Source: a virus
DNA length: 25,591 nucleotides
Strand: one strand, 5' to 3'
IMG/VR virus record: IMGVR_UViG_3300032309_001433
Location: 1 to 25,591 of that record
In this document: piece after piece, positions 9,267 to 16,325 of the stretch
Layout: the number at the start of each line of letters is the position of its first letter
Numbering within the stretch: the stretch's first letter is position 1
Made by a program: the position numbers and the translations under genes
Notes under the pieces: generated by a model
Database searches by the model: none
Told to the model about the DNA's origin: nothing
The model's input: the letters and a program-made list of their open reading frames with translations, nothing else

Positions 9267-9605
9267 TTAAGATTTATCATCAACAGAATACATTATATCA
9301 TGTTCATATAAGAATGTCAAGCAACAAAGAGCATGTGCTAAATGGTGTTTGCCAGATTCAGGATCAATTTGTTCGCCTTCTTTCCATGCCCACAAATGCC
9401 TTTGGGCTGCATCAAAGTACCTGCGTTTGGAATCTGGTACATGTTTCCAATTATCAGGTTCATACTTCTCAGCACCAAAGGTCAATACATCAACAACAGC
9501 TTTAAGTGCAAGTGGTGGTAATAAACCATATTGTAGTTTACCACCATCAAACTTGCGACCACCAGTTGTGGCTGTTTGTGAATCTTTTACAACTTTACTT
9601 GTCAT
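9267..9605 (-). CDS. DUF5664 / dATP-dGTP diphosphohydrolase N-terminal-like protein
   Basis: This 112-residue protein contains RKFDGGKLQYGLLPPLALKA, DVLTFGAEKYEPDNW, FDAAQRHLWAWKEGE, DPESGKHHLAHALCCLTFL. These blocks match the phage DUF5664 family, annotated as dATP/dGTP diphosphohydrolase N-terminal domain and thought to resemble all-helical MazG-like nucleotide pyrophosphatases; the acidic and histidine residues would bind metal. I use ATG 9605, which overlaps the stop of the glycosyltransferase gene (ATGA), rather than a longer frame. A nucleotide-pool role next to the clamp gene is reasonable but unproven. Its 3' end contains the gp45 promoter. Confidence 0.7.
   Translation of the reverse strand: MTSKVVKDSQTATTGGRKFDGGKLQYGLLPPLALKAVVDVLTFGAEKYEPDNWKHVPDSKRRYFDAAQRHLWAWKEGEQIDPESGKHHLAHALCCLTFLYEHDIMYSVDDKS
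9292..9320 (-). promoter_or_regulatory. Sigma70 promoter for gp45
   Basis: TTGACA (9320-9315) and TATAAT (9297-9292) are 17 bp apart, with TGA directly before the -10 (extended -10). All twelve consensus bases match. Predicted start is near 9285, about 33 bases before the gp45 ATG. It sits inside the end of the DUF5664 gene. Confidence 0.85.
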
Positions 9606-10430: not shown

Positions 10431-10473
10431 ATAAAAAAGAGGAAGTAACACCTATATGTATAACTTCCTCTTT
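10431..10473 (-). terminator. Intrinsic terminator after the small HTH gene
   Basis: Plus-strand AAAGAGGAAGT (10436-10446) pairs with ACTTCCTCTTT (10463-10473), an 11-bp stem with a 16-base loop. In the minus-strand transcript it is followed by a U-rich run ending UUUUUUAUUU. It ends transcription from the HTH gene before the glycosyltransferase gene. Confidence 0.75.
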
Positions 10474-10490
10474 ACTTTTCCTAAACTATT

Positions 10491-10766
10491 TTAGGCAAAA
10501 GCACGCTCACCTTGTGAACGAATAGCAGCAATGCCTGCAGCAACCATACGCTTGGTTGGAGAACCAAGACGATAGAAGGAAACTTTATCGCCATTTGCGT
10601 TGATGCGTGAGTTCAGGTAAATTGCATGACCTTCGTTACGCAACTCATTGATAGTAGCGGAAGGATTAGCAACACCAAAAACAGATTGCATTTTTTGTGG
10701 TGTGAGAGTGTTATATTCGCTATCTTTGGACAAATAGGCGAGAACACGAGCTTTAGTTGATTTCAT
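10491..10766 (-). CDS. Small winged-helix-like DNA-binding protein
   Basis: This 91-residue protein begins MKSTKARVLAYLSKDSEYNT. It has helices that fit a winged-helix arrangement: TPQKMQSVFGVANPSATINELRN as the turn and recognition helix, then HAIYLNSRINANGDKVSFYRLG as a beta wing. I chose ATG 10766, preceded by GGAG at nine bases; the longer frame above it would cross the promoter leader. It is monocistronic, with its own sigma70 promoter upstream and a terminator downstream. Its leader can fold into a pseudoknot, which suggests translational control. It could regulate the adjacent promoters, though no evidence here shows the target. Confidence 0.7.
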   Translation of the reverse strand: MKSTKARVLAYLSKDSEYNTLTPQKMQSVFGVANPSATINELRNEGHAIYLNSRINANGDKVSFYRLGSPTKRMVAAGIAAIRSQGERAFA

Positions 10767-10786
10767 TACAAATAACTCCATAAATT

Positions 10787-10830
10787 GGTCGCAAATTAAA
10801 AAGCATTTGAGAGGCGACCGTTCTCTCAAA
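10787..10830 (-). promoter_or_regulatory. Leader RNA with H-type pseudoknot potential
   Basis: In the minus-strand RNA, TTTGAGAG (10830-10823) pairs with CTCTCAAA (10813-10806), eight perfect base pairs. Its loop contains GGTCGC (10819-10814), which is perfectly complementary to GCGACC (10792-10787) just downstream. Loop 1 is 3 bases and loop 3 is 13 bases and U-rich. The element ends about eight bases before the GGAG ribosome binding site of the HTH gene. T4 gene 32 uses a leader pseudoknot for autoregulation, an analogy only. Confidence 0.65.
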
Positions 10831-10839
10831 TATGATACA

Positions 10840-10868
10840 AGTATATCAGATTATGAACCTGCTGTCAA
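10840..10868 (-). promoter_or_regulatory. Sigma70 promoter for the HTH gene
   Basis: TTGACA (10868-10863), 17-bp spacer ending in TGA, then TATACT (10845-10840). Predicted start near 10833 places the pseudoknot element at the very 5' end of the message. Confidence 0.82.
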
Positions 10869-10888
10869 CCATTATACAGGTATAAGTG

Positions 10889-10914
10889 AAAAAAGACCCG
10901 GCTATTGCCGGGTC
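10889..10914 (-). terminator. Intrinsic terminator after the MoxR-like ATPase gene
   Basis: GACCCGGC-AATA-GCCGGGTC, an eight-pair GC-rich stem with a four-base loop, followed by six T residues on the minus strand. It lies 20 bases after the ATPase stop codon. This is the strongest terminator in the window. Confidence 0.92.
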
Positions 10915-10934
10915 AAGTGCCGAACAACTTACTA

Positions 10935-12128
10935 TTAGAAAGGTTGATTTTCTTCAGCCTCAGGATTTTCATTTACCGGAACTTCTGGTTCAGGTTGTGG
11001 TGCCAGAATTTCTTCGGCAGAAGCACCAGCGTCAACTTTGGTATATAAGTCAACAAAACTTGCCTTGGTATCATCGTCAAAGCGGTTCAAACACAAGGTA
11101 ATTGCCTTCATTTTATCGCCAAAGATACCATAGGTTTCTACAATATGGACTAAACGGCGAGTGGAAATCACTTCATCACAACCACCATCCATAAATGTTT
11201 TACGAATTACATCAGCCCATGTAACAAGCTTCTCGGCGAATTCACTATCAGCACGACCAACGGAAGATAATTCTTTATCAACAATCTTACGCTCAATCTT
11301 AACAGGAGGAAATTCCTGTTCCATTGTAGTGCGGAATCTTTCTAAGAAGGCTTCGTTAAGCACATTGGTAAACATGTAACGACCATCATCAGAGCCTTTA
11401 CCTTTAGTATTAGCAGTAGCAAACACCGTAAAACCAGGTGCAGGTACAATCATCTCGCCTTTTTTCTTCAGCATAAATGGTTTGCCTTCAAGCACACGCT
11501 GTAATGAGGAAAGATTTTGAGCACCGTAATCAATCTCATCAATACAAAGCACAGCACCTTGACGAGCAGCCGTAGTTACGGGGCCGTCACGCCATTCCAT
11601 ATTACCATCAATCAACACATAGTTACCAAGTAAATCACTTTCATCGGTTTCAGGTGTCATTGAAATACAAACGAATTTGCGTTTGGCTTTGGCACAGGCC
11701 TGTTCAATAGACATGGTCTTACCATTACCAGAATGGCCTGAAATGAAAACAGGAAAGAACCGCATTGAAGTTACAATTGAAAGCACATCGTCAAAGTTGC
11801 CAAACGGCACATAATTTTTATATGATTTAGGAACCAAATCAGTAGTATCCAAATCGGTTTGGACATTTTGAATTTTGTTCTCAGATTTTTGAATTGGTTT
11901 TGCCATTGGAATCACTTGGGCTTGTAAATCAATTGTCGTAGCACCAGCAGTAGGTACTCGGTATTTACCACGACCAACACGATTAGCTTCATCTTTAGTA
12001 AAAAATTGAGTTGAAGCAATACCCAATTCACCAGCAATAACTTTAATTTCTGCTTTGCTGATGGTTTGTTTACCTGTAGCAACTAAAGCATCCATAAATT
12101 TTTGTTTGATTTCGGCACGACTTGTCAT
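10935..12128 (-). CDS. MoxR/CobS-like AAA+ ATPase
   Basis: This 397-residue protein has an N-terminal helical/wing-like region (1-60, ending GRGKYRVP), a linker, and a MoxR-family AAA+ core: Walker A GHSGNGKT at 131-138, ESDLLG at 163-168, EWRDGPVTTAARQG at 178-191, Walker B LCIDEID at 194-200, sensor 1 ATAN at 237-240 and FLERF at 261-265. An acidic, proline-rich tail follows. Marine T4-like phages carry a homologue named CobS, after the cobaltochelatase subunit. MoxR proteins typically work with a vWA partner, and such a gene lies directly upstream. I chose ATG 12128, ten bases after GGGAG; a start at 12149 would leave almost no leader after the promoter. Real cobalt insertion is doubtful, since no chelatase CobN is seen here; protein remodelling is likelier. 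Confidence 0.9.
   Translation of the reverse strand: MTSRAEIKQKFMDALVATGKQTISKAEIKVIAGELGIASTQFFTKDEANRVGRGKYRVPTAGATTIDLQAQVIPMAKPIQKSENKIQNVQTDLDTTDLVPKSYKNYVPFGNFDDVLSIVTSMRFFPVFISGHSGNGKTMSIEQACAKAKRKFVCISMTPETDESDLLGNYVLIDGNMEWRDGPVTTAARQGAVLCIDEIDYGAQNLSSLQRVLEGKPFMLKKKGEMIVPAPGFTVFATANTKGKGSDDGRYMFTNVLNEAFLERFRTTMEQEFPPVKIERKIVDKELSSVGRADSEFAEKLVTWADVIRKTFMDGGCDEVISTRRLVHIVETYGIFGDKMKAITLCLNRFDDDTKASFVDLYTKVDAGASAEEILAPQPEPEVPVNENPEAEENQPF
11567..11597 (-). repeat. 31-bp GC-rich repeat, copy 2
   Basis: Identical to 3607..3637 except for one base (C for G at position 24 on the plus strand, changing Pro to Arg). It encodes the EWRDGPVTTA part of the ATPase. The GPxTxA segment is common in MoxR proteins, so this copy is probably the original context. 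Confidence 0.85.
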
Positions 12129-12164
12129 TATATAATAACTCCCATTCACAGTTTTAATACTACC

Positions 12165-12193
12165 ATTCTATCATAACAGATGCACTTTGTCAA
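12165..12193 (-). promoter_or_regulatory. Sigma70 promoter for the MoxR-like ATPase
   Basis: TTGACA (12193-12188), 17-bp spacer ending in TGA, TAGAAT (12170-12165), then GGTAGTAT downstream. Predicted start near 12158. It closely resembles the promoter of the CobT-like gene at 14665..14693, including the downstream GGTAGTAT and the palindrome upstream of the -35. Confidence 0.82.
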
Positions 12194-12199
12194 GAGCAT

Positions 12200-12227
12200 C
12201 TGTTGCCTAAAAACAACAGCTTAGGCA
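12200..12227. repeat. Palindrome upstream of the ATPase promoter (operator or alternative hairpins)
   Basis: CTGTTG and CAACAG are separated by eight bases, just upstream of the -35. An overlapping pair, TGCCTAA (12204-12210) and TTAGGCA (12221-12227), includes the stop codon of the CobT-like gene. The two stems exclude each other in RNA. A related element lies at 14699..14720. There is no U-run, so it is not a typical terminator. Confidence 0.6.
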
Positions 12228-14629
12228 GCAATGCCTTCAATGAACTTGGAAACCAGCACACGATTTACTGTTTTCTTTTTGTTCATTTTGGCAAAAGCTG
12301 ATGCCAATTTTTTAGTGGTAAATTTACCTTCAATTTCAATTTCATCTTGCTCGGTTTTCAAATCACTTCCACCAGAAATAAGGAAGAATGAATTATAACC
12401 ATCGTTTTTTGAAATCAAAAACTTTTCAGTTTTAAATTGTTTTACCAACTCTTTTTGTTTGTTGAACCATTGGTAATAATCTTTATTGTGTAAATCAGCC
12501 AATGTTTGATTTTCGCCAATAGAATATCTATTGTTAATTGCTTGACGAGTATGACCTGCACTTTGATTTGAAATAATAAAGAAACCAAATATCTTAGAGT
12601 TGGTCACTTTAGCAAACCATTTAAATACAGCGATGTTGACCGATTGGCGGCCACCGTCAAGTTTCATTTGGAATTTATTTTCACGGTCAACAAGATAAAC
12701 ATTTTTACCATGAAAGTCCATTCTTTCGGTGCTATGTTTAACGATTGTTTCGCCATTTTGTACCACATCATAAGTGACATAGAATCTGTTAATCCAATCA
12801 GCATCACCATCGTGGACAATAATCAAACTTGTTAAGTCAAGATTGTTCTTTTGTTTAAACTCTTTCATAATTTCAGCAGTTGCAACCAAAGCTTGTGTCA
12901 ACGGAGTATTTGAAAGGTACTCAGAGTCAGGCAATGGAACATCTGAACGATAAAGACGGGTTACTTCAAATGCTTTTTTGAGCAATAACATATTCTTTAA
13001 TGCACCAGTAAATTCAGCATTTGACATTTGCGAATTGATATACTCACGCAAAAATACCGTGCCTAATTCAACTGAACCAAGTTCTCTGGTAAATTCAGCA
13101 CGATTTGTTTTGACATATTCTTTCCGTTGTTCAACAGTCATATTCAAATCACATATGCGAGCTTCTTCACTATCACCAAAACCATACACAGCAAAAGGAA
13201 TATTCACTTTGCGACAGAACATGGCAAGCACCAAAATCTGCTCAATTGAACCAGACATATTGTTTGACATAGAACCAGATTTATCTAGCAACAAAATCAA
13301 ACCATGGCTTTTGCCTTTTGGTGTCAACATCACTTTACGGAAAATGTTGTCATCAAATTTGTATGATGAAAGCTTATTGATATCAATGTCACCAGTATCG
13401 GCAAGCTTTGATTTACTAAATGCTTTGGCTGCCTTACGCATTTCAAATTCTTTGGCAAGTAAACCAATGTATCTTTCATTTTTGCGTTTGAAATCGTTTA
13501 CCAGTTCCATGGCTAAACCAGGTTGAATATATTGTTTAGTAACACAATCACCATAAAACTTGGTTAGATTTGCTTGAACCGTTTTAGCAGGTGTAACAAT
13601 GTTTTTCAGAATTGGTTTTGCCATATTTACATAGCAGAACTCTTTACATTTTTCATCCAACAACATAGTTTCATTATTACGGAAAGATTCATCCGTAGAA
13701 CATGATGGAGAAAACTGGTCTTGCCATGATGATGCTGATTCTTTCCAACGATTATATGAATCGCCATCTTCATCGCTATCGGTTTCTTCACCTGAATCGT
13801 TTTCACCAGATTTTTGGCCTTTATTGTCATCAGATTTATTGTTGGATTCTTTATCGGTCTTTTCACCGTTGCCGTCACCTTCATTTTCTTCGTCTGATTC
13901 TCCACTTTGGCCTTTTTCGTTTTTTTGGCCTTCAGTAGTTTCAGCGGAGTTTTCTTCATCATCAAACTCCTCAAAATCATAATCGCTGTCAATCTCATTA
14001 TTGAAATCATCACTTTCAGCGGCTTCTAATTCTTCAAAGTATTGAAGCTTCATTTCCATTTGTTCATCTTTGGAATAAGCATACACTTCATCGGTAACAC
14101 GAATTACATCGTCCCAAGATTCACAAGCTTGGACTTTTTTAACTAAGAGCTCTTCTTTAGCAGAAAATTCAATCTTAGTATTTGTCCATTGAGATTTGCT
14201 GTAAAGATTCAGGCGGTCAATGAAGCTAAGCTCATTAACATCAGTACCTTTAATACCAAAAAAATCACGATTGATTAATTCTTGGTAACCATTACGGAAA
14301 GAATTGTTGAGGCCAGGATACTTACGCTTGACCTTCTTTTCAATTCTAGCATCTTCAACAACATTAAGGAAGTTTTTATAGAATTTTCCTTTTGATTTGT
14401 CAGAGGCAGTATTATGCCAACCATCAGCAGGAGTATAGAGAGCATGGCCAACTTCGTGACCACAGAGCAGGTCGTAAATAGCGCCTGTCATATTTTGCCA
14501 AATTGGAAGATATAAAACCCTATTCTTAGGGTCAAATTTGGCAGTTTGGATTTTTTGGTGTTGAACCGTGAGATTCTCGGTTGCCATTAATCTGGCTAAT
14601 TGAGATTTTTGTTCGGCTGTAAATGTCAT
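12221..14629 (-). CDS. CobT-like protein: HExxH metallopeptidase-like domain plus vWA domain
   Basis: This 802-residue protein has, in order: an N-terminal domain with the zinc-binding motif HEVGH at 58-62 (within CGHEVGHAL) and VVEDARIEKK at 90-99 as probable further ligands; a helical part; a very acidic, low-complexity Glu/Asp/Ser/Gly/Asn linker at about 203-295; another helical segment; and a vWA domain with the MIDAS motif DKSGSMS at 449-455. CobT of cobaltochelatase has the same acidic linker plus vWA layout, but a putative protease module is not part of the usual chelatase. It is immediately upstream of the MoxR-like ATPase and both have near-identical promoters, so they probably act together. 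The ATPase would bind through the vWA MIDAS. The substrate is unknown. Confidence 0.88.
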   Translation of the reverse strand: MTFTAEQKSQLARLMATENLTVQHQKIQTAKFDPKNRVLYLPIWQNMTGAIYDLLCGHEVGHALYTPADGWHNTASDKSKGKFYKNFLNVVEDARIEKKVKRKYPGLNNSFRNGYQELINRDFFGIKGTDVNELSFIDRLNLYSKSQWTNTKIEFSAKEELLVKKVQACESWDDVIRVTDEVYAYSKDEQMEMKLQYFEELEAAESDDFNNEIDSDYDFEEFDDEENSAETTEGQKNEKGQSGESDEENEGDGNGEKTDKESNNKSDDNKGQKSGENDSGEETDSDEDGDSYNRWKESASSWQDQFSPSCSTDESFRNNETMLLDEKCKEFCYVNMAKPILKNIVTPAKTVQANLTKFYGDCVTKQYIQPGLAMELVNDFKRKNERYIGLLAKEFEMRKAAKAFSKSKLADTGDIDINKLSSYKFDDNIFRKVMLTPKGKSHGLILLLDKSGSMSNNMSGSIEQILVLAMFCRKVNIPFAVYGFGDSEEARICDLNMTVEQRKEYVKTNRAEFTRELGSVELGTVFLREYINSQMSNAEFTGALKNMLLLKKAFEVTRLYRSDVPLPDSEYLSNTPLTQALVATAEIMKEFKQKNNLDLTSLIIVHDGDADWINRFYVTYDVVQNGETIVKHSTERMDFHGKNVYLVDRENKFQMKLDGGRQSVNIAVFKWFAKVTNSKIFGFFIISNQSAGHTRQAINNRYSIGENQTLADLHNKDYYQWFNKQKELVKQFKTEKFLISKNDGYNSFFLISGGSDLKTEQDEIEIEGKFTTKKLASAFAKMNKKKTVNRVLVSKFIEGIAA

Positions 14630-14664
14630 TGTAGTATAGTCCTATTTAACTAATTTATACTACC

Positions 14665-14693
14665 ATTATATCAGTATTCAGTTGGATTGTCAA
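14665..14693 (-). promoter_or_regulatory. Sigma70 promoter for the CobT-like gene
   Basis: TTGACA (14693-14688), 17-bp spacer ending in TGA, TATAAT (14670-14665), all consensus bases matched, followed by GGTAGTAT. Predicted start near 14658, about 30 bases before the ATG at 14629. Confidence 0.88.
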
Positions 14694-14698
14694 GACCA

Positions 14699-14720
14699 CC
14701 TGTTGCATAGAAACAACAGG
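14699..14720. repeat. Palindrome upstream of the CobT-like promoter
   Basis: CCTGTTG and CAACAGG form a perfect 7-bp inverted repeat with an eight-base centre, placed five bases before the -35. It matches the 12200..12219 element in sequence, spacing and position. Confidence 0.65.
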
Positions 14721-14746
14721 CTAAGCTACTGATTCCTAAAGAGATT

Positions 14747-14917
14747 TTACTTAGTAATACTTTCCCAGAGGTCTTTATACGCCAGAACAAGATTTGTCCA
14801 TAAAGCAATAACCGCTTTAATTGGATGTTCAATAAAAGTGGCAAAAGCAATCAATGATGCTGGTACGGCCACCAATAGCGTTATAATAAGTCCAAGTATG
14901 CCTAAAAATGTAATCAT
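14747..14917 (-). CDS. Small single-span membrane protein (56 residues)
   Basis: Translation from ATG 14917 gives a hydrophobic segment at about residues 3-28 (LGILGLIITLLVAVPASLIA within it), then IEHPIKAVIALWTNLVLAYK and a polar tail WESITK. The ribosome binding site is AAAGAGA just before the ATG. The start is 12 bases after the T-run of the structured RNA, so it is probably expressed by read-through of that element. It resembles small phage membrane peptides in form only. Function unknown. Confidence 0.55.
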   Translation of the reverse strand: MITFLGILGLIITLLVAVPASLIAFATFIEHPIKAVIALWTNLVLAYKDLWESITK

Positions 14918-14928
14918 AATCTCTTTAT

Positions 14929-15004
14929 AAAAAAATGGAGCGGTGTTCTGCTTTGCTCAGATAATTTAAGAGGGTGTCTTAAATCGTGCTATCACCCACC
15001 GCAT
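14929..15004 (-). ncRNA. Structured small RNA or attenuator leader with its own promoter and terminator
   Basis: From a predicted start at 15004 the minus-strand RNA runs about 76 bases to a seven-U tract (14935-14929). The outer stem is GCGGTG (15002-14997) with CACCGC (14945-14940). Inside, GTG-ATAG-CAC, then ATTTAAGA-CACCC-TCTTAAAT (eight pairs), then TCTG-AGCAAAG-CAGA can form three hairpins, giving a cloverleaf-like outline followed by TCCA. It lacks a T-loop TTC and a U33 anticodon loop, so it is not a normal tRNA. It may be a stable phage RNA, a degenerate tRNA, or an attenuator for the small membrane gene starting at 14917. Confidence 0.55.
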
Positions 15005-15010
15005 AAGGAC

Positions 15011-15039
15011 ATAATACACTAATACTTTAACTTTGTCAA
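15011..15039 (-). promoter_or_regulatory. Sigma70 promoter for the structured RNA
   Basis: TTGACA (15039-15034), 17-bp spacer, TATTAT (15016-15011). It begins five bases after the stop codon of the DUF4338-like gene. Eleven of twelve consensus bases match. Confidence 0.82.
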
Positions 15040-15044
15040 GCGTT

Positions 15045-16325
15045 TTAACGACCAACTTGGCAAAGATACTTCTCTTTTGCCGATTGCCATGGCAAAACTG
15101 TAAGGTCGTCATAGAAAAGGGTATCACTATTGTTACGCTCTTTTTTGACCAGTTGTTTAATACGAGGCTTGGCATGTTTTGTTTTCCAAATCTCTGTAAG
15201 TGCTTCAATGCTGGTATCAAATGATTTTACCAACTTCTCATCACCAATTCGTTTGTTAAGATAATCAATTGAGTTATCATACAAAGGCGACCAATAAATT
15301 CCACGAGCATGGTCGGTACGAATAATTTCCTTTGGTATATTTAGTTTGCTATATGTAAACTGTAATGAACGATTCTTGTGGTCACGCTTATGTGGTTGAC
15401 CGCTTGGTTTCTTCGCAACATACCACTCAAAGTATTTTCTTGTATGATTAACTTTCAACCAATCACGAATCATATACCGAGTTTTCTTTTCAGGTTCAAA
15501 CGATACAGAACCTGCCGTGAAGCCCATCTTTTGCCAATGGTCTAAGTTATCATACTGAGATAGACCATCAGCCTTGGTTCTGCCATACAATGATGTAGTT
15601 GTTACTGAAACAAGTGTATCACCATACAATTTCTTCCATAATTCTTGCACAGGGTCAGCAAGGCATAATAGCGCCAACAATTTACCACCAACATAATTGA
15701 AACCAAGTGGTTGCAATGGCACAATTGTAGAACCAATGGCTGTGTGATTAATCATACCGCCTTGTGTTTTCAATTCTCTTGGCCAACCAATGTGATTATC
15801 TCTTGGTGTTAGGTCTAAGAAGTCAGATGAAATACAAATAACACCAAGATATTTCTGTGTTACCTTATCACGAATAACAAAATTAAGATTGCGACCAATG
15901 TTAGAATTGTTTTTCATTGTAGATGAAAAGGTACGAATACAATTCCATAACTCAGGCAGGTCTTTCTCTTTATTGGTATACAACATCTCTGGTTGTAATG
16001 CCAAATAATCTTCAGGTGTTTTAGGCACCCAAAAGTTTGATTTGATTTCTTCAATGGCTCTGCGTTGACCTTCATCTGCAAGAACTCGTTTCTCGCCTTC
16101 CCACAAATCGTTTACAGTAACAGTAGGATACTTTTCTTGCACCTCACACCATTTTTGGTAGAGTGTATATTCTTTTACATCCATCTGTGAAACATATTTC
16201 AGGTCGTTAATTATCTGCTCACGCAACCCATCTTCGGTAAATTCTAATGTAGGAAGTGGAGTTTGTTCTTGCCACTTTTGCCATTGGGCTTCTACATCAT
16301 CTTTTGGATCAAAACTATATGCCAT
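15045..16325 (-). CDS. DUF4338 (DruA-like) family protein, distant
   Basis: This 426-residue protein has a central region at about 158-270 reading QKYLGVICISSD, RDNHIGW, HTAIGSTIVPLQ, YVGGKLLALLCLADPVQELW, LYGDTLVSVTTTSLYG and later WQKMGFTAGS. The order YLG...RD-x-x-IGW...P...LL...W...YG...ET/TTSLYG...GxTxG fits the DUF4338 family, which includes DruA of the Druantia defence system and many stand-alone phage and transposon-linked proteins. The N-terminal 150 residues are helical and unassigned; the C-terminus is basic. Its ATG overlaps the peptide deformylase stop (TAATG), placing it in the gp47-gp46 operon. Biochemical activity is not known for the family. Confidence 0.5.
   Translation of the reverse strand: MAYSFDPKDDVEAQWQKWQEQTPLPTLEFTEDGLREQIINDLKYVSQMDVKEYTLYQKWCEVQEKYPTVTVNDLWEGEKRVLADEGQRRAIEEIKSNFWVPKTPEDYLALQPEMLYTNKEKDLPELWNCIRTFSSTMKNNSNIGRNLNFVIRDKVTQKYLGVICISSDFLDLTPRDNHIGWPRELKTQGGMINHTAIGSTIVPLQPLGFNYVGGKLLALLCLADPVQELWKKLYGDTLVSVTTTSLYGRTKADGLSQYDNLDHWQKMGFTAGSVSFEPEKKTRYMIRDWLKVNHTRKYFEWYVAKKPSGQPHKRDHKNRSLQFTYSKLNIPKEIIRTDHARGIYWSPLYDNSIDYLNKRIGDEKLVKSFDTSIEALTEIWKTKHAKPRIKQLVKKERNNSDTLFYDDLTVLPWQSAKEKYLCQVGR

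What the first reader, a model, noticed from the sequence alone, without database searches (positions are those of the whole stretch)
10431..15039. Accessory island of a vWA/HExxH protein, MoxR-type ATPase, small HTH protein, membrane peptide and structured RNA, each with its own strong promoter
Between the recombination operon (gp47-gp46-def) and the glycosyltransferase/gp45 cluster, the tightly overlapping gene layout stops. Instead there are four near-consensus sigma70 promoters, two intrinsic terminators, two matched palindromes, a leader pseudoknot and a possible small RNA. The central pair is MoxR/CobS-like ATPase plus CobT-like vWA protein. The vWA chain carries an HEVGH metallopeptidase-like domain, so the pair could be an ATP-driven remodelling protease rather than a cobaltochelatase. 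Seen: motifs, promoters, terminators. Known: MoxR ATPases pair with vWA proteins. Inferred: the five pieces form one system made early in infection.
Basis: partly seen in the sequence, partly recalled or inferred. Interest (0 to 1): 0.75.

Follow-up and report, generated by a model that had tools for sequence, protein, structure and literature searches.

The report
Phage protease-chaperone module with glycine-tRNA-like RNA
This stretch of a T4-like freshwater virus of bacteria holds an already described ATP-driven chaperone/protease gene pair, and beside it an apparently undescribed small RNA gene that looks like a stripped-down glycine transfer RNA and is always found with a DruA-like viral gene.

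Summary
The pieces are real, but this is not an accessory island. gp47-gp46-def-DruA-[RNA]-vWA/HExxH-MoxR ATPase-HTH-glycosyltransferase-MazG-gp45 is a conserved gene order in freshwater relatives, and the ATPase/vWA pair also lies between gp46 and gp45 in cyanophages and pelagiphages. The pair is known (PHROGs 249/459); Iyer 2021 already proposed a MoxR + vWA-metallopeptidase machine. My tests favour that reading over 'CobST cobaltochelatase': HExxH plus a downstream Glu and the MIDAS site are invariant, CobT models fail, and CobN is absent. The other pieces do not form one fixed system: the 56-residue peptide occurs only in the nearest relatives. Two RNA elements stand out. (1) The 'structured RNA' (14936-15002, minus strand) is a 67-nt cloverleaf ending in CCA, with its own promoter and glycine-tRNA-type acceptor and NCC loop. 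Three families (A, B, C) replace one another in the slot; one relative has a true tRNA-Gly(UCC) there, and other phages carry type B in tRNA arrays. tRNA finders miss them. All 77 DruA loci with enough downstream DNA carry one; full-length DruA among phage isolates occurs only in two pelagiphages, both with an odd tRNA-Gly. (2) The HTH leader is a strongly covarying pseudoknot. A non-ribosomal glycyl-RNA partner for DruA is attractive but unproven.

The parts
15045..16325 (-). DruA-like protein (PF14236), 426 aa, just upstream of the RNA gene
   Evidence: Pfam DruA E 6e-17; alignment A7
15011..15039 (-). sigma70 promoter of the RNA gene, TTGACA-17-TATTAT; -10 ends 8 nt before the RNA 5' end
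14936..15002 (-). tRNA-Gly-like RNA, type B, 67 nt, GCGGTG...CACCGC-U-CCA cloverleaf with ACCC in the anticodon-position loop
   Evidence: CM 93.7 bits; this sequence is in the model
14747..14917 (-). 56-aa hydrophobic peptide ORF, found only in close relatives L002, L003, L004 (partial) and L006
14699..14720 (-). hairpin CCTGTTG..CAACAGG before the vWA promoter, probable terminator/punctuation of the RNA gene
   Evidence: T-tailed in relative L054
14665..14693 (-). extended -10 sigma70 promoter of the vWA gene (12/12)
12221..14629 (-). vWA protein with N-terminal HExxH zincin-like domain (H58, E59, H62, E92) and MIDAS (D449, S451, S453, T575, D607); PHROG 459
12200..12219 (-). second matched hairpin CTGTTG..CAACAG before the ATPase promoter
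12165..12193 (-). extended -10 sigma70 promoter of the ATPase gene (11/12)
10935..12149 (-). MoxR/CobS-like AAA+ ATPase (PHROG 249); GTG start 12149 or ATG 12128
10895..10914 (-). intrinsic terminator after the ATPase gene
10840..10868 (-). extended -10 sigma70 promoter of the HTH gene (11/12)
10787..10831 (-). H-type pseudoknot in the HTH leader, ATTTGAGAG-AAC-GGTCGC-CTCTCAAAT...GCGACC
   Evidence: found in all 43 distinct leaders, loop stem varies with compensation
10491..10766 (-). 91-aa winged HTH-like protein (PHROG 4973; weak PF14090)

Best explanation
The region is the conserved gp46-gp45 junction of a T4-like aquatic phage and holds separately transcribed units. (1) A MoxR AAA+ ring plus a vWA co-chaperone fused to a zincin-type metallopeptidase domain: ATP hydrolysis is inferred to move the vWA domain so that a target, probably a phage or host protein complex, is remodelled and in part cleaved. 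(2) An independent RNA gene between the DruA-like gene and the vWA gene makes a short tRNA-Gly-like RNA. Shown: promoter, cloverleaf with covariation, CCA end, NCC loop, replacement by true tRNA-Gly in one relative, and constant company of the DruA gene. Inferred: it is charged by glycyl-tRNA synthetase, is not a normal decoding tRNA (4-nt anticodon-position loop in type A, non-consensus T loops), and serves together with the DruA-like protein. (3) A small HTH protein whose mRNA leader is a conserved pseudoknot next to the ribosome-binding site, probably a translational control element.
For: Pair: adjacent in 77/80 loci, order conserved; catalytic and MIDAS residues invariant; vWA domain resembles NorD (Z 15.3) and Midasin MIDAS (Z 15.5); the best PDB rows for the N-terminal domain are zincins: ZMPSTE24 Z 7.3, ArdC 6.2, BepA 6.0, abylysin 5.8; ATPase profile hits CobS, CbbQ and NorQ structures; CobN absent from nine phage records. 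RNA: 186 occurrences/68 distinct sequences before removing duplicate contigs; type A 8 pairs changed on both sides, 41 cells against 14.8 shuffled; type B 6 pairs; true tRNA-Gly(UCC) in the same slot in L063; type B in tRNA arrays, often just upstream of tRNA-Gly(UCC); the type A model's next best hits are mostly ordinary or pelagiphage tRNA-Gly genes, at weak E 0.02-0.9; -10 ends 8-11 nt before G1 in most cases. DruA link: RNA in all 77 DruA loci with 150 nt or more downstream; DruA in 9/9 large contigs with the RNA or the tRNA-Gly; full-length DruA in isolates only in HTVC008M and Mosig, both with an odd tRNA-Gly(ACC)-like gene, in HTVC008M the only RF00005 hit in the genome. HTH leader.
Against: No expression, charging, binding or protease data. 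The zincin fold match is below Z 8 and Foldseek E is above 0.2. DruA and RNA counts come from one phage clade and are not independent. Type B in tRNA arrays is kilobases from DruA. Types A-C do not reach the tRNA model, so 'tRNA-Gly-like' rests on architecture, end sequence and the shared slot. GlyRS identity elements are from my own knowledge of E. coli.
Confidence: 0.62

Rival explanations
1. The ATPase/vWA pair is a viral CobST that helps a host CobN insert cobalt into the corrin ring (Liu 2021).
For: Published claim (PMC8651126); ATPase profile matches CobS structures at E 2e-30; weak CobT matches in several relatives, best E 1e-6.
Against: CobT Pfam finds no match in the window, TIGR01651 11.3 bits against a 759 cut-off, no CobN in nine phage records, intact zincin residues conserved throughout; Midasin and NorQ also match the ATPase.
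Confidence: 0.1
2. The pair is a virion assembly/maturation chaperone with a degenerate, non-catalytic zincin domain used for target binding.
For: NorD-like vWA architecture with a separate N-terminal domain; a viral MoxR-vWA pair without peptidase is reported to serve tail assembly (cited in PMC7824862).
Against: H58, E59, H62 and E92 are invariant in all aligned sequences, which is unlikely for a dead domain.
Confidence: 0.25
3. The RNA is a dedicated glycyl donor: host GlyRS charges it and the DruA-like protein uses the glycyl group to modify DNA or protein.
For: GlyRS-type acceptor and CC loop kept while decoding features decay; constant company of DruA; a distant cyanophage DruA-like protein is annotated as Mom by its submitters.
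Against: DruA-Mom profile comparison is not significant; no structure of DruA could be predicted here; no literature support was found in the held library.
Confidence: 0.2
4. The RNA is a working but reduced tRNA-Gly that reads GGN codons and escapes host tRNA-cleaving defences.
For: Type B in tRNA arrays; HTVC008M copy has a 7-nt TTACCAA loop and scores 49.5 bits as tRNA; phage tRNAs with altered anticodon loops are proposed to evade nucleases (PMC10264068).
Against: Type A has a covarying pair closing a 4-nt loop, which cannot present a normal anticodon; type B coexists with an ordinary tRNA-Gly(UCC).
Confidence: 0.25
5. The RNA is only a processing or punctuation signal that separates DruA and vWA mRNAs.
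For: Lies between the genes, followed by a hairpin.
Against: Own promoter placed a few bases before the 5' end; occurs in tRNA arrays away from these genes; loop bases are as conserved as stems.
Confidence: 0.1

Closest known systems
MoxR AAA+ / vWA-metallopeptidase pair of jumbo phages (Iyer et al. 2021, PMC7824862)
   Same: MoxR ATPase with a vWA protein that has an N-terminal metallopeptidase domain; role in virion assembly with peptidolysis proposed there
   Different: Here in the gp46-gp45 junction of T4-like aquatic phages; conservation of active site and MIDAS measured over 79 proteins
Cyanophage core genes cobS and 'peptidase' (PHROG 249 and 459)
   Same: Same protein families, same neighbourhood between gp46 and gp45
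   Different: 33% or less (vWA) and 41-49% (ATPase) identity; the two genes adjoin here, while several cyanophages have genes between them
NorQ/NorD
   Same: MoxR ATPase with vWA/MIDAS partner and separate N-terminal domain
   Different: NorD is described without a peptidase domain; its target is nitric oxide reductase
CobS/CobT of cobaltochelatase
   Same: Homologous ATPase, vWA partner with acidic linker
   Different: CobT family models not met, HExxH intact, no CobN
Phage tRNA-Gly and non-canonical mitochondrial tRNAs
   Same: Acceptor with CCA, three arms, NCC loop
   Different: 3-bp D arm, 4-6-nt anticodon-position loop in type A, non-consensus T loop, missed by ARAGORN and by Rfam tRNA
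DruA of Druantia type I
   Same: PF14236 domain; DruA-like cyanophage proteins reported by Phold (PMC12774648)
   Different: No other Druantia gene seen in this window, carried by a phage, associated with a tRNA-like RNA

Membership tests
MoxR AAA+/vWA co-chaperone pairs | MoxR-type AAA+ ATPase with Walker motifs | tested here: met
   PF07728 E 9e-21, CbbQ_C 1e-5; invariant GxSGNGKT and DE
MoxR AAA+/vWA co-chaperone pairs | Partner with vWA domain and intact MIDAS | tested here: met
   D449, S451, S453, T575, D607 invariant; NorD vWA Z 15.3
MoxR AAA+/vWA co-chaperone pairs | The two proteins form a complex | not testable with these tools
   Adjacency only
Zincin (gluzincin) metallopeptidase | HExxH plus downstream Glu ligand conserved | tested here: met
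   H58, E59, H62, E92 invariant
Zincin (gluzincin) metallopeptidase | Zincin fold | tested here: inconclusive
   Best PDB rows are zincins, but best Z 7.3 and Foldseek E above 0.2
Zincin (gluzincin) metallopeptidase | Zn binding and proteolysis | not testable with these tools
   Needs biochemistry
Cobaltochelatase CobNST | CobT family match at cut-off | tested here: not met
   PF06213 no match in the window; TIGR01651 11.3 of 759 bits
Cobaltochelatase CobNST | CobN subunit encoded with CobST | tested here: not met
   PF02514 absent from 9 phage records, 6 of them isolate genomes; a host CobN is not excluded
tRNA (RF00005) | Match to tRNA covariance model or ARAGORN | tested here: not met
   Types A, B, C no match even at E 0.5; only L063 and HTVC008M copies match
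tRNA (RF00005) | Cloverleaf with acceptor stem and CCA end | tested here: met
   Covariation in types A and B
tRNA (RF00005) | Seven-base anticodon loop and T-loop consensus | tested here: not met
   Type A 4-nt loop with covarying closing pair; T loops AGCAAAG, TTTAACT
tRNA-Gly identity | G1-C72, C2-G71, G3-C70, U73 and CC in the anticodon loop | tested here: met
   Present in types A and B and in the type C, HTVC008M and Mosig copies; that these are the GlyRS identity elements is own knowledge
tRNA-Gly identity | Glycylation by GlyRS | not testable with these tools
   Needs aminoacylation assay
Mom DNA modification enzymes | DruA-like protein related to Mom (PF25680) | tested here: inconclusive
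   Profile comparison not significant; Pfam gives DruA only; no DruA fold could be predicted

The most novel reading that the evidence does not exclude
A family of phages encodes a dedicated, non-ribosomal glycine-tRNA mimic that host glycyl-tRNA synthetase charges, and a DruA-like protein uses the glycyl-RNA (as donor or as guide) to modify phage or host DNA or protein. This would be a new kind of RNA-protein partnership in phages and a clue to DruA in Druantia defence.
Probability: 0.2. Interest if true: 0.88.

Novelty: new variant of a known kind. Interest (0 to 1): 0.6.

Why it matters
The ATPase/vWA pair is nearly universal in aquatic T4-like phages and is annotated in two incompatible ways (cobalamin synthesis or peptidase); the conservation data favour an active metalloprotease-chaperone. 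The RNA is missed by ARAGORN and the Rfam tRNA model, is common in lake phages, and offers a concrete partner for DruA, a defence protein for which I found no biochemical function in the papers read. It also occurs, in a form closer to an ordinary tRNA, in two cultured pelagiphages, so tests can start at once.

Tried and rejected
Rfam scan for riboswitch or other known families: none at gathering score; a preQ1-II match at E 4 is noise. blastn of type A and type B RNAs against 50,697 phage records: no hit. The H-type pairing GGGTG/CACCC inside the window's RNA was considered as the leader pseudoknot and dropped: relatives lack GGGTG while the cloverleaf persists. A link of the RNA to the vWA pair was dropped because the RNA follows DruA, not vWA. 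DruA as a Mom homologue: profile comparison not significant. CobT match by Pfam: none in the window. PDB sequence search with the vWA profile: none. A search of bacterial genomes with the RNA model was not possible from this window.
Full report
What is there. The window is a 25.6-kb IMG/VR fragment of a T4-like phage with all identified genes on the minus strand. Between def/DruA and the glycosyltransferase lie a 56-aa peptide, the 802-aa vWA protein, a MoxR ATPase and a 91-aa HTH protein. The near-consensus promoters are far above chance (nine of 11/12 or better against 0.75 in shuffles; five with TG-extended -10 against 0.08) and are kept in relatives.

Not an island. In 80 related loci the order g46-def-DruA-(RNA)-vWA-ATPase-HTH-glycosyltransferase-MazG-gp45 recurs, with lineage-specific loss of DruA, of the RNA or of the peptide. 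In HTVC008M, Mosig, syn9, S-SRM01, P-TIM68 and S-CAM1 the pair also lies between gp46 and gp45. The proteins are PHROG 459 and 249, in 462 and 536 phage records. The pair is not always linked: in the 235-kb contig G001 the two genes lie far apart, and three fragments show only the vWA gene.

The pair. HExxH is present in 79/79 full-length proteins (75 HEVGH, 3 HETGH, 1 HECAH), NxxED in 79/79 and the MIDAS DxSGS in 79/79; the same holds in a 41-sequence set reaching 26% identity. The AlphaFold model (pLDDT 77) matches the Midasin MIDAS domain (Z 15.5) and NorD (Z 15.3) in the vWA part. The N-terminal domain alone (pLDDT 85.9) gives zincin metallopeptidases as its best PDB rows (ZMPSTE24, ArdC, BepA, abylysin, BlaR1, IrrE), with modest scores (Z 7.3 at best; Foldseek E above 0.2). 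CobT models are not met and CobN is absent from nine phage records. Liu 2021 wrote that cobT is 'mistakenly annotated as a peptidase'; the invariant zincin residues argue against that. Iyer 2021 had already described MoxR plus vWA-metallopeptidase in jumbo phages and proposed a role in virion assembly with proteolysis. NorQD cryo-EM work supplies a mechanism by which ATP hydrolysis rotates the vWA domain (PMC13036017). So: mechanism inferred, family known.

The RNA. Downstream of DruA every relative with intact sequence has an element GCG(G/A)...C(C/T)CGC-U-CCA of 63-74 nt. Three families occur. Type A has a D-like arm GTC-CGA-GAC, a loop CCCN closed by a covarying pair and a T-like arm with loop TTTAACT. 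Type B, that of the window, has a 9-bp anticodon-like stem with loop (C/T)ACCC and T-like loop AGCAAAG. Type C has loop GTCCA and T-like loop TGCGAAT; the type B model finds it at E 1e-8 to 2e-5. In L063 the slot holds a true tRNA-Gly(UCC). In other phages type B stands in tRNA arrays, often directly before tRNA-Gly(UCC), one copy per record. A sigma70-type -10 ends 8-11 nt before G1 in most cases. Rfam tRNA and ARAGORN miss types A-C. Pelagiphages HTVC008M and Mosig carry unannotated 74-nt versions with loop TTACCAA; the HTVC008M copy scores 49.5 bits as tRNA and is the only tRNA hit in that genome. All share the acceptor pairs and U73 that, from my own knowledge, mark tRNA-Gly for bacterial GlyRS, and CC in the loop.

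Link to DruA. Sampling by DruA, not by vWA: 77 of the 80 best IMG/VR DruA loci have 150 nt or more downstream, and all 77 carry a type A, B or C element, in a few cases behind an inserted gene. In the vWA set, DruA adjacent and RNA present 38, DruA without RNA by the simple pattern 2, neither 13, RNA without DruA 0. Nine of nine large contigs with the RNA or the tRNA-Gly encode DruA; G010 (a fragment) lacks both. Among 50,697 phage records, full-length DruA of this type is in HTVC008M and Mosig only. These counts share one ancestry, so the association is suggestive rather than proof of function. A distant cyanophage DruA-like protein is annotated as Mom, but profile comparison does not support a Mom relationship.

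The HTH leader. All 43 distinct leaders contain an H-type pseudoknot of the form ATTTGAGAG-(short spacer)-Y-CTCTCAAAT-(linker)-Y'; Y has 15 sequences with matching Y' (GGTCGC/GCGACC, GGTCTC/GAGACC, GAATCGC/GCGATTC, GGGCCGC/GCGGCCC and others). Scores of 31-44 compare with a highest of 33 in 60 shuffles. It ends shortly before the GGAG ribosome site, so translational control, perhaps by the HTH protein itself, is the likely use; this is inference.

Verdict. The lasting result is the tRNA-Gly-like RNA and its company with DruA, plus a well-supported leader pseudoknot.

Noticed in passing
15045-16325: Phage DruA-like protein (PF14236) conserved next to the RNA gene; a second, shorter DruA-like paralogue (about 370 aa) occurs in most of the ten contigs searched.
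   Followed up: partly
10787-10831: Covarying H-type pseudoknot in the HTH mRNA leader, in all 43 distinct leaders examined.
   Followed up: partly
L082:9722-9795 and L085:11977-12050: Unannotated tRNA-Gly(ACC)-like genes in pelagiphages HTVC008M and Mosig; the HTVC008M copy is the only RF00005 hit in its genome.
   Followed up: yes
L018, L023, L024, L047, L311: Two tRNA-like elements of different types in tandem in the slot between DruA and vWA.
   Followed up: no
L025, L044, L286, L288, L302, L309, L317: An inserted sequence, homing-endonuclease-like in appearance, lies between DruA and the RNA; the RNA is kept intact behind it.
   Followed up: no
L010, L029, L030, L047, L064, L070: Insertions of about 1.5-2.2 kb between the ATPase and HTH genes.
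   Followed up: no
9292-9320: A 12/12 extended -10 promoter just upstream of gp45, inside the preceding MazG-like ORF.
   Followed up: no
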